Assembly (NCBI GenBank): GCA_900471815.1
Contig: UICE01000003.1
Location: 953,558-1,017,557 of the forward strand
Reading direction: 5' to 3'
From: Hyphomicrobiales bacterium
GTDB lineage: Bacteria; Pseudomonadota; Alphaproteobacteria; Rhizobiales; Rhizobiaceae
Length of the DNA: 64,000 nucleotides
Below the pieces are notes generated by a model, which saw nothing but the letters and a program-made list of their open reading frames with translations, was not told the origin of the DNA and did no database searches. Within the stretch, counting starts at the first letter, position 1. The number at the start of each line of letters is the position of its first letter. Shown here one piece after another: positions 52,775 to 60,523 of the stretch. The translations under genes were made by a program, and so were the position numbers.

Positions 52775-54322
52775 CTATTCCGCTTTGTCTGCTTCGACGT
52801 AGCGAGGGAAAATAGGCTGCGGTGCAGGCAAATCGCCACCCGGAACAAGTTGGCTTTCCACGAGGTCAGTAAAGTTGCGCTCGTCGGCCGGTACCGCCAG
52901 AATATCGAGCAATTTCTCAGCCGAACCCGGAATGAATGGCTGGCAAAGAATACCGACACGCCGGATCACTTCTGCTGTCACATAAAGAACAGTTTCCATG
53001 CGGGCTGGATCGGTTTTCTTCAGCGCCCAAGGCTCCTGCCCTGCAAAATAGCGGTTTGCTTCGGCCACGACGCCAAAGATTGCCGCCAAGGCCTGATGCA
53101 GTGCCTGAACGCCAACAGCTTTGCGTGCCGTATCCAATGCCGCGATTGCCTGATCGAGAATTGCCTTGTCGGCTTCAGTCAATTCGCCAGGTTTTGGCAC
53201 TTTGGCCTCGCAATTCTTGGCGATCATCGACAGCGAACGCTGCGCCAGATTGCCAAGATCATTGGCAAGATCGGCATTTGTACGATTGACGATCGCTTCA
53301 TGGCTGTAATTGCCATCCTGACCGAACGGTATTTCCCTCAGCAGGAAATAACGCAACTGATCAAGCCCGTAATGTTCCACGAGCGCAGTTGGATCAATCA
53401 CGTTGCCAACCGATTTCGACATTTTCTCGCCGCGGTTAAAGACAAACCCATGCCCGAAAACCCGCTTAGGCAATTCGATCCCGGCAGACCAGAGAAATGC
53501 TGGCCAGTAAACCGAGTGAAAGCGGATAATGTCCTTGCCGATAATATGCACATCAGCGGGCCAATAATGCCAAAGATCTGCATTTTCGTCCGGGTAACCT
53601 GTTGCCGTGATGTAATTGGTCAGGGCATCCACCCATACATACATCACATGCTTTTCGTCGCCGGGAACAGGGACGCCCCAATCAAACGTGGTTCGTGAAA
53701 TTGAAAGGTCTTTCAGTCCGGATTTGACAAAGGACACAACTTCATTGCGTCGCTCGTCGGGTCCGATAAAGCTTGGATTCTCGCTGTATAGTGCAAGCAG
53801 GCGGCCCTGATAGGCTGACAGACGGAAGAAATAACTCTCCTCTTCAAGCCATTCCACAGGCGTGCCCTGCGGGCCGTAGCGCACATTGTCCGCACGCAGC
53901 TCCGTCTCTTCTTCCTGATAATAGGCTTCGTCGCGCACGGAGTACCAGCCGGCATAACCGCCCTTATAAATGTCACCCGCATCGGCCATTTTCTGCCAGA
54001 TCGCTTGCGAAGATTTATAGTGGCGCTCTTCCGTCGTGCGAATGTAGTCATCAAACGAAGCATTCAAAAGATGCCCCATGTCACGGAAAAGTTTAGCATT
54101 TCTATCAGCGAGTTCACGCGGGCTGATGCCTTCTTTGCGCGCCGTCTGCAGCATCTTGATACCGTGCTCGTCCGTTCCACTCAGGAACATGACATCCTTG
54201 CCGTCATGGCGGTTGAAGCGTGCAATAGCGTCGGTGGCAATCACCTCATAGGCGTGACCGATATGCGGGCTTCCGTTTGGATAAGCGATGGCAGTCGTGA
54301 TGTAGAATTTTTCGCGGCTCAT
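52775..54322 (-). CDS. metG: Methionyl-tRNA synthetase
   Basis: 515 residues, class I synthetase of the short type without the C-terminal tRNA-binding (EMAP-like) extension. HIGH motif as [15 protein letters not shown] (near residue 13), KMSKS as [12 protein letters not shown] (near 295), and an anticodon-binding helical domain. It lacks the four-Cys zinc knuckle between the halves of the catalytic domain, fitting the subgroup typical of alphaproteobacteria. Middle of the rlpA-to-ybaK operon. Confidence 0.96.
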
Positions 54323-54420
54323 GGGTACCTGACTCTGTCTCTTCTTTCCGCATCTTGGGAAAAGTTGACATAACGCAAGTCAGACGTGATTGCCATAGTG
54401 GGCGGGTTTGCTGTGCGGCT

Positions 54421-55473
54421 CTAATTGAATGCCCGCTGGCTACGCTCAAGAAAAATCAAAACGGTTTGTTTGCGATCAAGATTGAAGGCCGCAGCATCCC
54501 TCGCCTCATTCTGGATTTCCCGCCATAGCAATGACCAGCGATTGGCTTCGTTGGCACTGTCCTGCTCGGCGGCAAGTCGTGCCTTTACGGCGATCCGCGC
54601 CAGCAAATCATCGAGGAACAAGTCATATTGAATCTCCGCGTCACGGCCCGAGAGGGCTGTTGCCAGAGCGTGAGCCTTTGGCACGTCAAAAACGCGTTTT
54701 GCCAGTATGCTGTCCACCGCCGCCGAGATTTCGAGGCCGCCAAAGGCGAGCAATAGCGCGGCCTTGCGCACGCTGCCATCCGCATGAGCCATCAATTGAT
54801 CTGCATCGGGCAGTGTTTGGGTGTCGAGATTAATCGCCTGTAATGCCGCTGATAGATCCTCGTTCGCCAGTGGTTCGAAACGAATCGATTGGCAGCGCGA
54901 ACGAATTGTCGGCAATAGCCGCCCTGAAGAATGCGATATCAAAATGAAAAGTGTTCGCTTGGGTGGTTCTTCAAGAGTTTTTAGTAAGGCATTGGCAGCA
55001 TTACGATTCATGTCATCAGCTGGATCCACGATTACAATGCGCCATGCGCCATCATGCGATGTCCGGTTTAGAAAATGTCCTACGCGCCGAATTTCTTCAA
55101 CCGGTATTCCGGTCTTGAATTTTCCGCCTTTTGCATCAAATGGCCGGCTTATATGCAGAATGGAAAGATGCGTTCCGGTCGCAATTTGCCTGTAGGGTGC
55201 GGTTGCGAAATTAGGTGTTGCAAGCGTCAATGGTGCGGTTTCAGGCTGGGGATATTTCAGCATATGTCCAGCGAGATGAAATGCCAGCGTCGCCTTGCCA
55301 ACACCTGGAGGACCTTCAAGAAGCAAGGCGTGGTGCATTTGGCCGGACTGATAGGCTTGAGCCAAAAAGGCTCGTATCCCCACATGACCAAACAGTGCTG
55401 GATTTGCTGAAGGCGATGGAACGCCATCAATAGCGTCATGTGTGGCTGGTACGTCCAGAACTGGCTCGCTCAC
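54421..55473 (-). CDS. holB: DNA polymerase III delta-prime subunit HolB
   Basis: 350-residue clamp-loader AAA+ protein. P-loop GPPGVGKATLAFHL near residue 55, VDPADDMNRNAANALLKTLEEPP (Walker B/sensor region), SHSSGRLLPTIRSRCQ (SRC motif). The Cys residues of the zinc module found in enterobacterial delta-prime are missing between the P-loop and Walker B, which is common outside gammaproteobacteria. Overlaps tmk by 4 bp (ATGA), the usual tmk-holB pair. Confidence 0.92.
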   Translation of the reverse strand: MSEPVLDVPATHDAIDGVPSPSANPALFGHVGIRAFLAQAYQSGQMHHALLLEGPPGVGKATLAFHLAGHMLKYPQPETAPLTLATPNFATAPYRQIATGTHLSILHISRPFDAKGGKFKTGIPVEEIRRVGHFLNRTSHDGAWRIVIVDPADDMNRNAANALLKTLEEPPKRTLFILISHSSGRLLPTIRSRCQSIRFEPLANEDLSAALQAINLDTQTLPDADQLMAHADGSVRKAALLLAFGGLEISAAVDSILAKRVFDVPKAHALATALSGRDAEIQYDLFLDDLLARIAVKARLAAEQDSANEANRWSLLWREIQNEARDAAAFNLDRKQTVLIFLERSQRAFN

Positions 55474-56141
55474 TTCGCCGCCTCAACTGTTTGAGTGTCT
55501 TTGTGCTTGTTTGCAGCCCTCACTTGATCAACATAAGCGATGATCTCGGCCGATATTATATCGATAGGCCGATCCGCAGCGATAACTTTGCAGCGCTTCG
55601 GCTCTGCATTGGCGATAGCAAGATATGCCTCGCGCCGTTTTATATGCAATTCCACGGTCTCTTTTTCAAAGCGGTCCGCAATGTCAGTGCCGCGCCGCTT
55701 ATTGGCCCGTTGAAGGCCAAGTTCCGCAGGTAGGTCGAGAATGATCGTCAGGTCCGGAATCAGGCCGTTAATAGCTGTCCGTTCTATGGCACGCATAAGC
55801 TGAGGGTCCAGATTTCCCGTAACGCCCTGATAGACGCGGCTTGAATCAATATAACGATCGCATAGCACAGTACGCCCAGCCTGCAATGCCGGACGGATAA
55901 CCTGCTCCACGTGGTCATTTCTCGCAGCGGCAAACAAAATTGCTTCCATTGCGGGCCCCAGTGATTCTGCCGCACCGCTCAGAATAACGTGGCGGGCAGC
56001 TTCAGCTCCTGGCGTCCCGCCGGGCTCGCGCGTTACCAGCACATCTTCGCCGTCAGAACGCAAATACTCGCTCAACCGGGCAATCTGGGTGGATTTGCCA
56101 GCGCCCTCGCCGCCTTCAAATGTAATGAACAATCCCTGCAC
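55470..56141 (-). CDS. tmk: Thymidylate kinase
   Basis: 223 residues. P-loop FEGGEGAGKSTQI near residue 8, DRY motif in VLCDRYIDSSRVYQG near 94, and a lid region with the arginines ANKRRGTDIADRFE. Phosphorylates dTMP to dTDP. Stop overlaps the holB start. The 91-bp gap upstream to the dacA-like gene contains no clear terminator, so the operon probably continues from rlpA. Confidence 0.96.
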   Translation of the reverse strand: MQGLFITFEGGEGAGKSTQIARLSEYLRSDGEDVLVTREPGGTPGAEAARHVILSGAAESLGPAMEAILFAAARNDHVEQVIRPALQAGRTVLCDRYIDSSRVYQGVTGNLDPQLMRAIERTAINGLIPDLTIILDLPAELGLQRANKRRGTDIADRFEKETVELHIKRREAYLAIANAEPKRCKVIAADRPIDIISAEIIAYVDQVRAANKHKDTQTVEAAK

Positions 56142-56232
56142 GCCTCGATCTCTTCGTTACTGGCATGAACCACGTACTGCAAACATGCAATATGGCATGT
56201 CTACTGATATTGGGGGGCAATTGCCAAGAAGT

Positions 56233-57441
56233 TTAAAAGTTCAATCGACGCATCCAGCCCGTGGTCAGCTCGAATACCGCATTCAGCGAGCGTTCCGTGA
56301 GATCGCCGCTTTCTACGGCTTCCGCTGTATAGACCGGCGTTTCCTGCACGAGTGCATCGCCAATCCAGATACGTAATGTGCCAACTTTTTGATCCGCTTC
56401 GAGCGGTGCCACCAATGGTCCATTATAGACCACATGTGCCTTGAGGCGGTCGCGGTTAGCCACGGGAACAAGTATGCTCACTTTCTCATGCGCTTTTAGT
56501 GGAACGCCGGACTTTACGCCGCCAAATACGCTGGCCTCGCCAACAGATTCGTTGGGTGCGAAAATGTCGACTTCTTCGAAGGCCTGATAAGCCCATTCAA
56601 AAATGCGCTTGGCTTCCTCGGCACGTTCTTTGTCTGTCGCAAGGCCGCTCAATGCAACGATATAACGCCGGCCGCCCCGCTCTGCTGCACCGACAATGCC
56701 ATAACCGGATTGCTCGGTGTAGCCGGTACCCATGCCGTCTGCGCCAATATCAAGCCGCAACAGCGGATTGCGGTTGCGCTGAAAAATGTTGTTCCAGGTA
56801 AAATTGTCCTGCGCATAGGTTTTGTAATATTCAGGGTATTCCTTTTTTATGTGTCGCGCCAACTTCACAAGATCGGTTAGCGATACCCGCTGCTTTGGGT
56901 CCGGCAGCCCGGTGGAATTGACGAATGTCGAAGCGGTAAGCCCTATTTCCTTGGCGCGCGCGTTCATTAATTCGGCAAATTTCGCCTCTGAGCCCGCAAT
57001 TCCTTCCGCGAGAATGATGCAGCCATCATTAGCCGACTGCACGATGACGCCTTGTATCAGATCGCCGACCGCGAGCTGGGATTTAAGTTTGGCGAACATG
57101 GTCGAGCCACCAGATGGCGCGCCGCCCGTGCGCCAGGCATTCTCGCTGACAGTATATTGCGTCGTCTGCGAAATCCTGCCCGCCTTCAACTCATGAAACA
57201 CCACTTCCATCGTCATGAGCTTTGCCAGAGCCGCCGGCTCGATCAGCGTGTCGGGCGATTTGGCGAATAATATTGTTCCGGTCTGGTCTTCGACCATAAG
57301 AGCCTGTTTGGCTTTGGTGTCAAACAGCGCTTCCTCGGCATTGGCAACCAAGGGCGTGAGCAAAATACCAATACTCAAAGCACAGGTATGAATATGCTTT
57401 GTCAGATAAGAGAATGTCCTGCCGGGCTTAGCTTCTGTCAT
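56233..57441 (-). CDS. DacA-family penicillin-binding protein with degenerate active site
   Basis: 402 residues from MTEAKPGRTF; signal-like hydrophobic segment at about 15-34, transpeptidase-like domain, and a C-terminal PBP5-type beta domain. The family normally has SxxK, SxN and KTG. Here the SxxK serine is Ala71 (PAALAKLM, codon GCT at 57229-57231), SxN is kept (S136-A-N138), and the KTG lysine is Gly238 (DGMGTGYT, codon GGT at 56728-56730). It should therefore not be an active D-alanyl-D-alanine carboxypeptidase. The frame is otherwise intact, so it reads as a structural or regulatory pseudoenzyme rather than a pseudogene. Overlaps rlpA by 14 bp. Confidence 0.9.
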   Translation of the reverse strand: MTEAKPGRTFSYLTKHIHTCALSIGILLTPLVANAEEALFDTKAKQALMVEDQTGTILFAKSPDTLIEPAALAKLMTMEVVFHELKAGRISQTTQYTVSENAWRTGGAPSGGSTMFAKLKSQLAVGDLIQGVIVQSANDGCIILAEGIAGSEAKFAELMNARAKEIGLTASTFVNSTGLPDPKQRVSLTDLVKLARHIKKEYPEYYKTYAQDNFTWNNIFQRNRNPLLRLDIGADGMGTGYTEQSGYGIVGAAERGGRRYIVALSGLATDKERAEEAKRIFEWAYQAFEEVDIFAPNESVGEASVFGGVKSGVPLKAHEKVSILVPVANRDRLKAHVVYNGPLVAPLEADQKVGTLRIWIGDALVQETPVYTAEAVESGDLTERSLNAVFELTTGWMRRLNF

Positions 57442-58744
57442 CGCGAACAACAAATGCGTCTGTTGCGCCAGCCTTCCAGGCTGCCTGTAACAATGCATCA
57501 GTCTGTTTTGCGGTGTCAGCCTTCGCGGCGAGCGCGATACGGCTACCGGTAGGGCTGGCGACTTCGGAAAGTTTTATTTTGCCAAGTGGCGCAAGTGTGT
57601 TCATCAAGCGCGTGGCTTCTTCCTTGTCGGCAAAAAGGCCAATATCAACATACTCGCCCTGGAATGCGCTTTGCGAGGCGCTCATTGATTTCCAAGCGCT
57701 TGTTACAGCTTCCGACGTCAACAGCATTTCCGTCGCTGCGGCAGGCGCATGCGCCATTTCTATACGCTCGCTGGCATAGGAATTGACGAAGGGTGAGGAT
57801 GTAGGCTTCTGGGCCTTATATGAGCCTACGAGTACCGCAGGTTTATCGGCAATAAATGGTCCGATCAGAGGCAGAACCGGATCAATATCCGTGTTGAACG
57901 ACAGGCCCGTGTCATCGACCAGACTTGGCTGGGATTGCGGCGTCGCCAATTGATTGGCCTGCTCCCCTAAAGAAATTGGCTGTGTGCCAAGGCTCGCCAC
58001 CTGAATACCTGCGGGTTCAGGACGTACCATACCGGGAACGGGCGTCTGCTTTCTCGCTGTTGGCGTGGTGCCGTTCATTGCGATCATGACGCCAGATGCC
58101 GGTTGTCCCCAAGGATCGGATGCGCCTGGTCCGCGATAGGATGCCATGAGAAAACGATCATCGTCGCCCTCAAGCGGTGCACGGCCAACATATTCAACTT
58201 TTACATCTGCAGTGCCTGTATGCTGATAGTCCAGCATAGTGGCAGCACGCTGCGACAGATCGATTACCCGGTCGCTATGATAGGGTCCGCGATCATTGAC
58301 GCGCACAATAACTGACGCGCCATTTCCAAGATTGGTGACGCGTGCATAGCTTGGCAGCGGCATAGTTGGGTGCGCTGCGGAAAGTTGTGCCGTGTCATAG
58401 ACTTCGCCATTGGCGGTCAAGCGCCCGTGAAATGCCGAACCATACCATGAGGCCCTGCCCTTGCGCACATAGCCCGGCTCTTCCTTGGGGTAATACCACT
58501 TGCCTGCAACCTGATATGGACGTCCGACCTGATTGCGGCCACCGCCCCGTGTGATCTTTCCGCCGGTCCAAACGCGCGGGCTTGCCTTCACACCATACTT
58601 GGATTCAGCAAAATATTCCTTGCCGTGGGACTTCTTGGTGATCTTGGCCTTTGGCGAAGCGCAGGCTGTCATGAGAACACCCATGGCCACGACGCCCGCA
58701 ATGCGGCTGAACTCGAAAACTCGGAAGGTTTTGGCTTTTGGCAA
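57428..58744 (-). CDS. rlpA: RlpA-family septal lytic transglycosylase-like lipoprotein with SPOR domain
   Basis: 438 residues. A lipoprotein signal with lipobox LMTAC (Cys28) indicates outer-membrane anchoring. The double-psi beta-barrel domain (about 95-185) contains GRASWYGSAFHGRLTANGE, AAHPTMPLP with a conserved His and VRVNDRGPYHSDR with the catalytic Asp. A low-complexity linker and a C-terminal SPOR domain (about 362-435) that binds denuded septal peptidoglycan follow. First gene of the minus-strand operon, coupled to the dacA-like gene. Confidence 0.9.
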   Translation of the reverse strand: MPKAKTFRVFEFSRIAGVVAMGVLMTACASPKAKITKKSHGKEYFAESKYGVKASPRVWTGGKITRGGGRNQVGRPYQVAGKWYYPKEEPGYVRKGRASWYGSAFHGRLTANGEVYDTAQLSAAHPTMPLPSYARVTNLGNGASVIVRVNDRGPYHSDRVIDLSQRAATMLDYQHTGTADVKVEYVGRAPLEGDDDRFLMASYRGPGASDPWGQPASGVMIAMNGTTPTARKQTPVPGMVRPEPAGIQVASLGTQPISLGEQANQLATPQSQPSLVDDTGLSFNTDIDPVLPLIGPFIADKPAVLVGSYKAQKPTSSPFVNSYASERIEMAHAPAAATEMLLTSEAVTSAWKSMSASQSAFQGEYVDIGLFADKEEATRLMNTLAPLGKIKLSEVASPTGSRIALAAKADTAKQTDALLQAAWKAGATDAFVVRDDRS

Positions 58745-59120
58745 TGCAAACCACCGGCCTGCACGGCCGTCCCCACAATTTTACATCAAGGCATAAATAC
58801 CAGATTGAAACATCTGCGCAAAGCCGAGACACATAACCGGATTTGTACGACGTCCATCAATGTCATCCAGAGGTTGATACGTTGTTAACAAATGCTTTGC
58901 GGGATTGATAATATTACGCATGTTTATGGATGGATTTGCAAGCGTAAGGCAGGTGATCTTGAGCACGCGCCCCGACGTCTAGGCGATGGCCTCCAGACTG
59001 CCATCTCCATAAACAATTGTTAATGCTGTTTCCCAACTGAAAATGACGTCTGGTCGCATTCTCCCAATGACGACAACCCTTTTCCAAGCGTTGCAGTATA
59101 TTTCTGAGAATCTGAGTGCC
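58745..59120. other. 376-bp intergenic region with no gene
   Basis: Lies upstream of rlpA and downstream of the cytochrome b561 gene. No convincing coding frame. One imperfect hairpin, ttacgcatg (58914-58922) / caagcgtaa (58939-58947), 8 of 9 pairs with a 16-nt loop. It should hold the rlpA operon promoter, but no clear promoter boxes stand out. Confidence 0.6.
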
Positions 59121-59675
59121 CTATGTCAGTCTCTTCCGCCCCGTAATCATCGCTGCGACGAGATTTTCCTTGTGACGAACACTGGCGAGAAGGACGCCGG
59201 CCAAATGAAGCGCCACAAGAAAAATGACACCGTTGGCAAGAAACTGGTGCACATCTTCAAGTAACTCTTCGCCAAAGAAACGATCTGTTGTTAACAGCCA
59301 GCCGGTCAGCCCTGTCATGCTTATGGTGAGCAATAGCGCCAGGATCATTGCGCCACCGGCAGGATTATGCCCGATATGACGCTCTTCTTTTCCCCGCCAG
59401 ATTTGCTTGAGATACCCAACTGTCTCGGCAGGTCCTTTCACAAAGTTTGTAAATTTGACAAAGCCACCATCCAAAAAACCGGCAAAAATACGGATGGTAA
59501 CGATGGTAACGGCGCCATAGCCCAGATATTCATGAACCCAGCGGATATTCTCGGACATTATCCAGGCGCCCAATACACAGGATGCGAGTGTCCAGTGCAT
59601 GGCCCGGATATATCCGGGCCATGTCTTGATGGATTGTCGCTCTTGCGACGCTATTTCTGATAACTCACTTGTCAT
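59121..59675 (-). CDS. Cytochrome b561-family membrane protein
   Basis: 184 residues with four hydrophobic helices and haem-ligating histidines in the expected places: YIRAMHWTLAS (helix 1), WVHEYLGYG (helix 2), the pair near DVHQFLANG, and VALHLAGVLLAS (helix 4). Motif content fits the bacterial di-haem cytochrome b561 group. It overlaps the end of the PepSY gene by 11 bp, so the two are co-translated. Electron acceptor role in the inner membrane is inferred. Confidence 0.87.
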   Translation of the reverse strand: MTSELSEIASQERQSIKTWPGYIRAMHWTLASCVLGAWIMSENIRWVHEYLGYGAVTIVTIRIFAGFLDGGFVKFTNFVKGPAETVGYLKQIWRGKEERHIGHNPAGGAMILALLLTISMTGLTGWLLTTDRFFGEELLEDVHQFLANGVIFLVALHLAGVLLASVRHKENLVAAMITGRKRLT

Positions 59676-59922
59676 CGCCCATGGCCTTGAAGCTTGCTGG
59701 ATCAAAGAACCTTTCCAGCTTCTCACCACTCGCTTTGGTCGCATAGGCTTCATAGCAACCATTCTCTGTCTTGATCTTTTTGACTTTCCATCCCTCACCC
59801 TCAAGCTGTTTCTGCAGCGCCTCTTTTGGCCGCCACTTCTCTTTAGGGGTATCGCATTTTGGGGCAGCCATTGCGGTGCTGGCAACGAGAGAAAGTGTCA
59901 AAGCGGCAAAAATGGATTTCAT
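59665..59922 (-). CDS. Small exported PepSY-domain protein
   Basis: 85 residues. Signal peptide MKSIFAALTLSLVASTAMA, then a compact PepSY-type domain: WRPKEALQKQLEGEGWKVKKIKTENGCYEAYATKASGEKLERFFDP, with two cysteines (CDTP and GCYE) that could form a disulfide. aaggacaagacc precedes the ATG. The frame is open to 60084, but the signal peptide sets the start. PepSY proteins are frequently paired with cytochrome b genes, as here; function unknown. Confidence 0.87.
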   Translation of the reverse strand: MKSIFAALTLSLVASTAMAAPKCDTPKEKWRPKEALQKQLEGEGWKVKKIKTENGCYEAYATKASGEKLERFFDPASFKAMGDDK

Positions 59923-60084
59923 GGTCTTGTCCTTCTTCAGGTTGTGACGTGACCTGTCTGAAGGCAATTGCTGACACGACACTGAATGGTGAGCGCTGGT
60001 CCCTTCATAATTGAACGTTCTGATTTTCGCCGATTTTTTTGGAATCAGAAAATTCGTCAATAGTGAATTAATTACTGGAACCAA

Positions 60085-60433
60085 TCGTGCGGTGATGGAT
60101 TTTACCTATATCAGGACGGCATCGAACATGTTTCGGAAAGCATCCTGATAGAGGCTCAGTATCGTCCATGAATAAAATCATGCGGCAATCTGGGCCTCAC
60201 TTTTGTGTGGTTTCAGTCCCATCTCGAGAGCCTGACATTGTTTCCCATTTGCGGCTCGTCTGGCCTTTATTCACATCTAATATCGCCAACGCAAATAGTC
60301 GCTGTAGAACAGGTTGACGCGGCAATCCGAAAGGCTATAAAGGCCCCCGAACAACATTCGGCAGAAAAGCAATCGCAATTGCTTTATCTCCGAAATGATC
60401 CTGAACCAGGTCATCAAGTGTTTTCAACAGGTT
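60085..60433. other. 349-bp intergenic region before tRNA-Ser, no gene
   Basis: Between the PepSY gene promoter side and the tRNA. No coding frame is credible. An inverted repeat atcagga (60110-60116) / tcctgat (60143-60149) with a 26-nt loop is the only visible structure. The region must contain promoters for the PepSY-cytochrome pair (minus) and the tRNA (plus). Confidence 0.6.
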
Positions 60434-60523
60434 GGAGGGGTGGCCGAGCGGTTTAAGGCACCGGTCTTGAAAACCGGCGTAGGTGAGAGCCTACCGTGGG
60501 TTCGAATCCCACCCCCTCCGCCA
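60434..60523 (+). tRNA. tRNA-Ser (anticodon UGA)
   Basis: Acceptor stem ggagggg (60434-60440) pairs with cccctcc (60513-60519), discriminator G, encoded CCA. Anticodon arm ccggt-cttgaaa-accgg gives anticodon TGA. A long variable arm (taggtgagagccta) and T arm tgggttcgaatccca complete a standard 90-nt serine tRNA. It lies at the border between housekeeping DNA on the left and accessory-looking genes on the right. Confidence 0.97.

What the first reader, a model, noticed from the sequence alone, without database searches (positions are those of the whole stretch)
56233..57441. DacA-type penicillin-binding protein has lost the catalytic Ser and the KTG Lys
In this intact, full-length D-Ala-D-Ala carboxypeptidase homologue the SxxK motif reads AxxK (Ala71) and KTG reads GTG (Gly238), while SxN is preserved. 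I checked both codons on the DNA (GCT at 57229-57231, GGT at 56728-56730); each differs cleanly from the expected codon without a frameshift. Family knowledge says both residues are indispensable for acylation. The gene is coupled to rlpA (14-bp overlap) in a cell-wall/division operon, so a non-catalytic role, such as binding peptidoglycan stem peptides or regulating RlpA or another PBP, is a reasonable inference.
Basis: partly seen in the sequence, partly recalled or inferred. Interest (0 to 1): 0.62.

Follow-up and report, generated by a model that had tools for sequence, protein, structure and literature searches.

The report
Dead DacA carboxypeptidase kept beside RlpA
A cell-wall enzyme gene in Phyllobacterium has lost the residues it needs to cut peptidoglycan yet is still tightly conserved, and many related bacteria have lost one or more of the same residues, so this "carboxypeptidase" has probably become a non-cutting helper protein.

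Summary
The window is Phyllobacterium; its 402-aa DacA (56233-57441, -) reads A71xxK, S136AN, G238TG and overlaps rlpA by 14 bp. It is no sequencing error: 20 of 20 genus genomes read carry the same Ala and Gly. The finding is wider than reported. Of 269 distinct DacA proteins beside rlpA, tmk or holB, 112 lack the KTG Lys, 65 the SxN Ser and 27 the SxxK Ser; every protein with such a Ser loss also lacks the KTG Lys. Of 101 genus representatives of the family, 51 lack that Lys; Sinorhizobium, Shinella and genera taken as Agrobacterium and Brucella lack it too (SxxK Ser kept). Outside the order, 28 of 28 loci read are canonical, so loss is derived. Three canonical S11 paralogues exist in this genome. 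The gene is not decaying: omega is about 0.09, the predicted fold is intact, the dead cleft strongly conserved. Best reading: a membrane-anchored pseudo-carboxypeptidase whose cleft still binds something (stem peptide most likely) and serves RlpA/divisome wall remodelling. Inactivity and maintenance are well supported; ligand and partner are inferred. Ten searches of an open-access library showed no description of it.

The parts
56233..57441 (-). pseudo-DacA: S11 (PBP5-type) D-Ala-D-Ala carboxypeptidase homologue, 402 aa
   Evidence: PF00768 residues 39-262, PBP5_C 288-377
57229..57231 (-). codon 71 GCT, Ala in place of the SxxK nucleophile Ser
57220..57222 (-). codon 74, Lys of SxxK, retained (kept in over 95% of both the KTG-Lys-intact and the KTG-Lys-less set)
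   Evidence: coordinates by codon arithmetic
57028..57036 (-). codons 136-138 Ser-Ala-Asn (SxN), retained
   Evidence: coordinates by codon arithmetic
56728..56730 (-). codon 238 GGT, Gly in place of the KTG Lys
56239..56301 (-). C-terminal helix 381-401, at the place of the membrane-anchor helix of PBP5-type enzymes (anchor role recalled from the family, not tested)
   Evidence: secondary structure; low confidence at the very end
57428..58744 (-). rlpA, DPBB_1 lytic transglycosylase with a lipobox-like LMTAC; overlaps dacA by 14 bp; His125 and Asp151 (catalytic pair recalled) present
55470..56141 (-). tmk (name as annotated in S. meliloti), next gene downstream, conserved linkage
54421..55473 (-). 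holB (DNA polymerase III delta prime, name as annotated in S. meliloti), conserved linkage

Best explanation
The gene encodes a pseudo-carboxypeptidase. In Phyllobacterium the rlpA-linked DacA has lost the acylable Ser and the KTG Lys and cannot work as a serine DD-carboxypeptidase (follows from family chemistry, not assayed), while its predicted fold, C-terminal helix and the walls of the dead cleft are kept under strong purifying selection (shown). The most likely mechanism is that the cleft still binds a peptidoglycan stem peptide or a mimic without cutting it, and that the membrane-anchored protein acts as a binding or placing factor for the co-encoded lytic transglycosylase RlpA and the division/remodelling machinery (inferred). 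Catalysis is left to other S11 paralogues with intact motifs (their motifs are shown, their activity is inferred). The same kind of change happened more than once in the order: loss of the KTG Lys, then of either the SxN Ser or the SxxK Ser.
For: Ala71/Gly238 in 20 of 20 genus genomes read. Among 269 distinct linked DacA proteins the KTG Lys is lost in 112, the SxN Ser in 65 and the SxxK Ser in 27, each of these Ser losses in a protein without the KTG Lys; 14 of 14 copies without a detected linked neighbour are canonical. 51 of 101 genus representatives lack the Lys. 28 of 28 loci read from other orders of the class are canonical, each with at least one of the same neighbours, so loss is derived; 16 losses on the tree of neighbouring genes. 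Median omega in Phyllobacterium 0.087, against tmk 0.082, holB 0.064, rlpA 0.127 and 0.121 for KTG-Lys-intact orthologues. The 112 KTG-Lys-less proteins are 382-412 aa. Position 136 is the most lost of 373 positions in the KTG-Lys-less set, while K74, N138, D139, G240 stay above 95%. In Phyllobacterium the cleft windows differ in 0.015 of comparisons against 0.136 in the rest of the domain, the lowest ratio of 13 clusters. AF2 model pLDDT 87.6; best solved match P. aeruginosa PBP5, Z 40.2, rmsd 3.4, 341 residues. RlpA His/Asp present in 108 of 108 readable KTG-Lys-less loci. In A. tumefaciens, insertions in Atu1499 (called DD-carboxypeptidase) and Atu1500 (RlpA) are both synthetically detrimental in the yejABEF mutant (passages of PMC9790009).
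Against: No biochemical test. Ser71 is kept in 85 of the 92 KTG-Lys-less proteins outside Phyllobacterium, so an altered acylating activity is possible there. On the dacA gene tree the KTG-Lys state needs only 5 changes, 2 of them regains, so the number of independent losses is open. One orthologue (L317) keeps KTG but has lost the SxxK Lys and the SxN Asn, against a strict order of decay. Cleft windows were chosen from recalled PBP5 anatomy; residues 214-223, outside them, are as conserved, and conservation could be structural. KTG-Lys-less clusters other than Phyllobacterium have cleft ratios of 0.17-0.54, overlapping the intact ones. No interaction of RlpA with this protein is shown; in P. 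aeruginosa the passages read name PBP7 among two cPBPs found as strong RlpA partners and do not name PBP5 as one. The Tn result on neighbouring genes could partly be polarity. That Atu1499/Atu1500 is this locus is inferred from gene numbers and names.
Confidence: 0.62

Rival explanations
1. Altered catalysis: the rlpA-linked protein still performs a reaction (another peptide bond, an ester or amide) with a remodelled site, for example with Lys74 as base and a different nucleophile or a water.
For: Lys74 and Asn138 are over 95% conserved in the KTG-Lys-less set, and Ser71 is kept in 85 of 92 members outside Phyllobacterium; the cleft windows are more conserved than the rest of the domain in all 13 clusters.
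Against: In Phyllobacterium and in at least four other lineages Ser71 is also gone with the protein full length; only Ala or, once, Thr replaces it; the residue at the KTG-Lys place varies widely (G, A, V, E, L, N, Q, T, M, S, F), as for a lost rather than re-specified function.
Confidence: 0.15
2. Decay towards a pseudogene: a redundant carboxypeptidase being lost slowly, kept only by translational coupling with rlpA and tmk.
For: 27 of 394 family genomes have no match at E 1e-55 (some are reduced or incomplete genomes); three canonical paralogues exist in this genome; a second DacA-like copy occurs in 8 of 51 KTG-Lys-less against 0 of 50 KTG-Lys-intact genus representatives.
Against: Omega as low as in tmk; the 112 KTG-Lys-less proteins are 382-412 aa, though the search cut-offs and the 340-aa filter (four sequences dropped) work against finding truncated ones; the dead cleft is strongly conserved.
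Confidence: 0.06
3. Scaffold role without ligand: the protein is held for protein-protein contacts (FtsK, RlpA, PBP1 homologues) and the cleft residues are conserved only for folding.
For: E. coli RlpA is reported as an FtsK partner and DacA as a potential one (PMC6113214 passages); contacts between cPBPs and lytic transglycosylases, RlpA included, are reported for P. aeruginosa (PMC9712689 passages).
Against: The conserved stretches include the SxxK and SxN walls and the 99-118 loop, which line the cleft by recalled family anatomy, and the contrast with the rest of the domain is stronger in Phyllobacterium than in the eight KTG-Lys-intact clusters, which folding alone does not predict.
Confidence: 0.22

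Closest known systems
PBP5/DacA-type S11 DD-carboxypeptidases (E. coli PBP5 1nzo, PBP6 3it9; P. aeruginosa PBP5 4k91)
   Same: Same two domains and fold (Z 40.2 to 4k91_B); rlpA lies directly upstream of dacA in E. coli too (PMC6113214 passages)
   Different: SxxK Ser and KTG Lys replaced by Ala and Gly; not expected to acylate
Inactive LytM factors such as DipM (EnvC and NlpD recalled)
   Same: A wall-hydrolase homologue that lost catalysis and is kept; DipM binds the lytic transglycosylases SdpA and SdpB, AmiC and CrbA and stimulates SdpA and AmiC (PMC10336132 passages)
   Different: Different fold and family; a regulator role of the DacA protein is not shown
SPOR-domain S11 carboxypeptidases (Caulobacter CrbA, Bradyrhizobium DD-CPase1)
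   Same: S11-type carboxypeptidase with wall roles in alphaproteobacteria (passages); a SPOR paralogue (L001) with intact motifs lies in this genome
   Different: SPOR in place of PBP5_C in L001, and no linked neighbour of this locus was detected at L001; the active sites of CrbA and DD-CPase1 were not read here

Membership tests
S11 DD-carboxypeptidase (as a protein family) | Peptidase_S11 domain, with PBP5_C in PBP5-type members | tested here: met
   PF00768 E 1.5e-60, PF07943 E 1.1e-19
S11 DD-carboxypeptidase (as a protein family) | PBP5 fold | tested here: met
   AF2 pLDDT 87.6; Z 40.2, rmsd 3.4 to 4k91_B over 341 residues
Catalytically active serine DD-carboxypeptidase | SxxK with nucleophile Ser | tested here: not met
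   Ala71 in the window and in 20 of 20 genus genomes read
Catalytically active serine DD-carboxypeptidase | SxN motif | tested here: met
   S136-A-N138
Catalytically active serine DD-carboxypeptidase | K(T/S)G motif | tested here: not met
   G238-T-G
Catalytically active serine DD-carboxypeptidase | DD-carboxypeptidase activity or covalent penicillin binding | not testable with these tools
   needs purified protein
Pseudoenzyme | Catalytic residues lost, gene maintained by selection | tested here: met
   fixed in genus, omega median 0.087, full length; loss of activity itself not assayed
Inactive hydrolase regulator (LytM-factor-like behaviour) | Binds and controls a wall hydrolase | not testable with these tools
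   only linkage and a shared genetic behaviour in A. tumefaciens (passage)

The most novel reading that the evidence does not exclude
About half of the genera in this family, model symbionts and pathogens among them, have converted the ancestral rlpA-linked PBP5 into a non-cutting stem-peptide-binding subunit that steers RlpA or the divisome/polar growth zone: a serine-PBP-family counterpart of the inactive LytM factors, evolved repeatedly by losing the KTG Lys first and a motif Ser next.
Probability: 0.35. Interest if true: 0.75.

Novelty: new variant of a known kind. Interest (0 to 1): 0.55.

Why it matters
Genes annotated or discussed as DD-carboxypeptidases in Sinorhizobium and, by locus inference, Agrobacterium (Atu1499) lack residues that the reaction is held to need. 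If confirmed, phenotypes of this locus must be read as loss of a non-catalytic wall factor, counts of working carboxypeptidases in these polar-growing bacteria change (A. tumefaciens is named as rich in LD-crosslinks in PMC11390936, passage), and the family offers a natural series (KTG-Lys loss, then SxN or SxxK Ser loss) for testing how a PBP-fold enzyme becomes a binding protein.

Tried and rejected
Sequencing error or frameshift: rejected, the same residues in 20 of 20 genus genomes read. Pseudogene: disfavoured. Compensating positive charge near the cleft: positions 118, 120, 154, 185 and 320 are positive in Phyllobacterium and less often so in KTG-Lys-intact proteins; I could not place them in the model and draw nothing from it. 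Rfam search of 54000-60500: nothing at gathering threshold. Naming Agrobacterium by a pAt gene failed (best 81% identity); the telomere resolvase family PF16684 was used instead: over the cut-off in 3 of 36 genomes tested, all of genus g42 (3 of 3 tested), and under the cut-off in a fourth, G062. That such a resolvase marks Agrobacterium is recalled. Brucella was named by 90-96% identity over 206 residues of MetRS to PDB 4dlp in 7 genomes of genus g41; that 4dlp is from Brucella is recalled. Genus g115 as Bartonella is a guess from genome size. Bradyrhizobium DD-CPase1 was considered as an orthologue and dropped: it carries a SPOR domain (PMC5567381 passages). SMc01188, NCR247-sensitive in S. 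meliloti (PMC5539429 passages), may be this gene, but I could not verify its place. The 'dac' gene of PMC11527210 (passages) is not identified by locus there.

Rows dropped before counts: 4 of 287 distinct proteins under 340 aa (L003, L089, L093, L162); 26 of 269 loci left out of the neighbour tree (243 used); 101 genus representatives used, with G070 (linked copy not fetched) and G086 (partial) left out, besides genera without a match; dN/dS in Phyllobacterium used 82 of 190 pairs with dS 0.05-1.5; 19 of the 20 loci gave a DacA row, two of them partial, and these 19 are not in the 269. Outside the order, 28 best-scoring loci of 61 matched genomes were read. The sampling of the 269 leans towards sequences similar to the window protein.

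Full report
What was checked. The gene at 56233-57441 (-) encodes 402 aa with Peptidase_S11 and PBP5_C domains. Aligned to solved PBP5/PBP6, Ala71 stands where the SxxK Ser is and Gly238 where the KTG Lys is; SAN is intact. rlpA ends at 57428, 14 bp inside dacA. The nearest named contigs are Phyllobacterium, 78-90% identical.

Fixed, not an error. The 20 genomes of the genus that were read (G000-G019) all have A71xxK, SAN, GTG. The genome holds three further S11 genes, each with SxxK, SAN and KTG: one with a SPOR domain and two without. So enzymes with intact motifs are present.

Wider survey. 333 loci gave a DacA hit, 287 distinct proteins, 283 of them at least 340 aa. By neighbours, 269 are linked to rlpA, tmk or holB; 14 have no such neighbour in the stretch held. 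Linked: SxxK in 240, AxxK in 26, TxxK in 1, SxxL in 1, SxxT in 1; KTG Lys kept in 157 and lost in 112; SxN Ser lost in 65. All 65 SxN-Ser losses and all 27 SxxK-Ser losses lie in proteins without the KTG Lys. L317 departs from this order: it keeps KTG but reads SxxT and SGG. The 14 without a neighbour are canonical. Of 101 genus representatives of the family with the linked gene, 51 lack the Lys, 37 the SxN Ser, 4 the SxxK Ser (one of them to Thr) and none the SxxK Lys. A later batch of 19 loci, mostly from genera already known to be KTG-Lys-less, has 18 without the Lys.

Named lineages. Sinorhizobium meliloti Ak57 (annotated D-alanyl-D-alanine carboxypeptidase): Ser at 71, LAN, ATG, with rlpA upstream and tmk, holB (delta prime), metG downstream. 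Sinorhizobium sp. M103 has the same motifs; Shinella sp. PSBB067 reads Ser, FAN, VTG. Genus g42, taken as Agrobacterium (link recalled): GLG in 7 of 7, NAN with Ser71 kept in 6 of 6 readable. Genus g41, taken as Brucella (link recalled): Ser kept and GTG in 7 of 7, SAN in 5 and AAN in 2. Ser loss together with GTG is seen again in Mesorhizobium ephedrae (L054) and Tianweitania aestuarii (L071), while T. sediminis (L082) has GTG but keeps Ser, an intermediate step.

Direction of change. From the rest of the class I read the 28 best-scoring loci of 61 matched genomes, each from another family: 28 of 28 have SxxK, SGN and KTG and at least one of rlpA, tmk, holB beside them. Of 42 linked loci of the order outside the family, 8 depart from the canonical set, 7 by lacking the KTG Lys and one (L317) otherwise. 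So an active enzyme is ancestral. Number of losses: 16 on a tree of the neighbouring genes (243 of 269 loci), but 5 changes including 2 regains on the dacA tree. Several nodes have weak support. I take recurrent loss as likely and the count as open.

Not decaying. Median omega (NG86, pairs with dS 0.05-1.5): Phyllobacterium dacA 0.087 (82 of 190 pairs), rlpA 0.127, tmk 0.082, holB 0.064; KTG-Lys-intact dacA elsewhere 0.121 (109 pairs), KTG-Lys-less dacA outside Phyllobacterium 0.125 (60 pairs). A YN00 run gave 0.076 over 74 pairs. KTG-Lys-less proteins are 382-412 aa. Comparing the KTG-Lys-less set (without Phyllobacterium) with the intact set over 373 positions, 136 is the most lost, 286 second and 238 third (238 by construction, since it defines the sets); 245, 239 and 242 rank 5th, 14th and 15th. 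Lys74, Asn138, Asp139 and Gly240 stay above 95% in both.

The dead cleft is conserved. In Phyllobacterium, non-catalytic positions in the SxxK, 99-118, SxN and KTG windows differ in 0.015 of comparisons against 0.136 for the rest of the domain; 51 of 56 cleft positions are invariant against 106 of 186 others. The ratio 0.11 is the lowest of 13 clusters of four or more sequences; the eight KTG-Lys-intact clusters range 0.24-0.57, the four other KTG-Lys-less ones 0.17-0.54. Residues 214-223, outside these windows, are as invariant. The windows follow recalled PBP5 anatomy. This is what a ligand- or partner-binding cleft would give; a purely structural reason is not excluded.

Fold. The AF2 model (48-sequence alignment) has mean pLDDT 87.6 and pTM 0.79. 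Foldseek and VIA-align rank P. aeruginosa PBP5 and E. coli PBP6 first, E. coli PBP5 close behind.

Partner and phenotype. RlpA His125 and Asp151 (the catalytic pair is recalled) are present in the readable loci, 108 of 108 KTG-Lys-less and 140 of 140 intact. In A. tumefaciens, transposon insertions in Atu1499 (called DD-carboxypeptidase) and Atu1500 (RlpA) are synthetically detrimental in the yejABEF mutant (PMC9790009, passages). By gene numbers and names this is the present locus, and the genus g42 copies read lack the KTG Lys and SxN Ser; I did not see the Atu1499 sequence. In E. coli rlpA lies directly upstream of dacA, RlpA is an FtsK partner and DacA a potential one by cross-linking, and deletion of either gene suppresses ftsK44, that of rlpA partially (PMC6113214, passages). 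A second DacA-like copy at E 1e-55 occurs in 8 of 51 KTG-Lys-less and 0 of 50 intact genus representatives (Fisher p 0.006); in 7 of the 8 it was read and is canonical and without a linked neighbour, the eighth (G095) was not read. These genera are related, so the test overstates independence.

How it most likely works. Shown: residue loss, fixation, conservation, predicted fold, linkage. Follows from family chemistry (recalled): without Ser71 no acyl-enzyme can form there; in E. coli PBP5 the KTG Lys is needed for carboxypeptidase activity. Inferred: the cleft binds a stem peptide, and the anchored protein places or regulates RlpA or the divisome. I give about 0.9 to loss of DD-carboxypeptidase activity in Phyllobacterium, about 0.5 to stem-peptide binding and about 0.35 to a direct RlpA role.

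Literature. Ten searches of the open-access library showed no paper on an inactive DacA at this locus in the listings returned (several lists were capped); only listings and passages were read, and most subscription journals are not held. Inactive LytM factors such as DipM (PMC10336132 passages) are the closest known behaviour.

None of these required other odds.

Noticed in passing
L301 and L317 (order-level genomes): Two orthologues outside the family lost the SxxK Lys (SxxL with IAY and MVG; SxxT with SGG but KTG kept), a different course of decay.
   Followed up: partly
genus g105 (G123, G202, G262, G315, G355): The five listed genomes of this 4-5 Mb genus have no DacA match at E 1e-55, so the linked gene seems lost or much diverged there.
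   Followed up: no
L178, L181-L185, L210, L212: A further canonical DacA (SGN, KTGH) without linked neighbours, in genomes most of which have a KTG-Lys-less rlpA-linked copy.
   Followed up: partly
L358, L359 and L189 (genus g114): One genus holds both states: KTG in L189 and L358, GTG in L359, a recent change that suits a close comparison.
   Followed up: no
L334 (CP090106.1): A 3.7 Mb record named pSymB of S. meliloti Ak57 carries the housekeeping rlpA-dacA-tmk-holB-metG locus, so it looks like a chromosome under a plasmid label.
   Followed up: no
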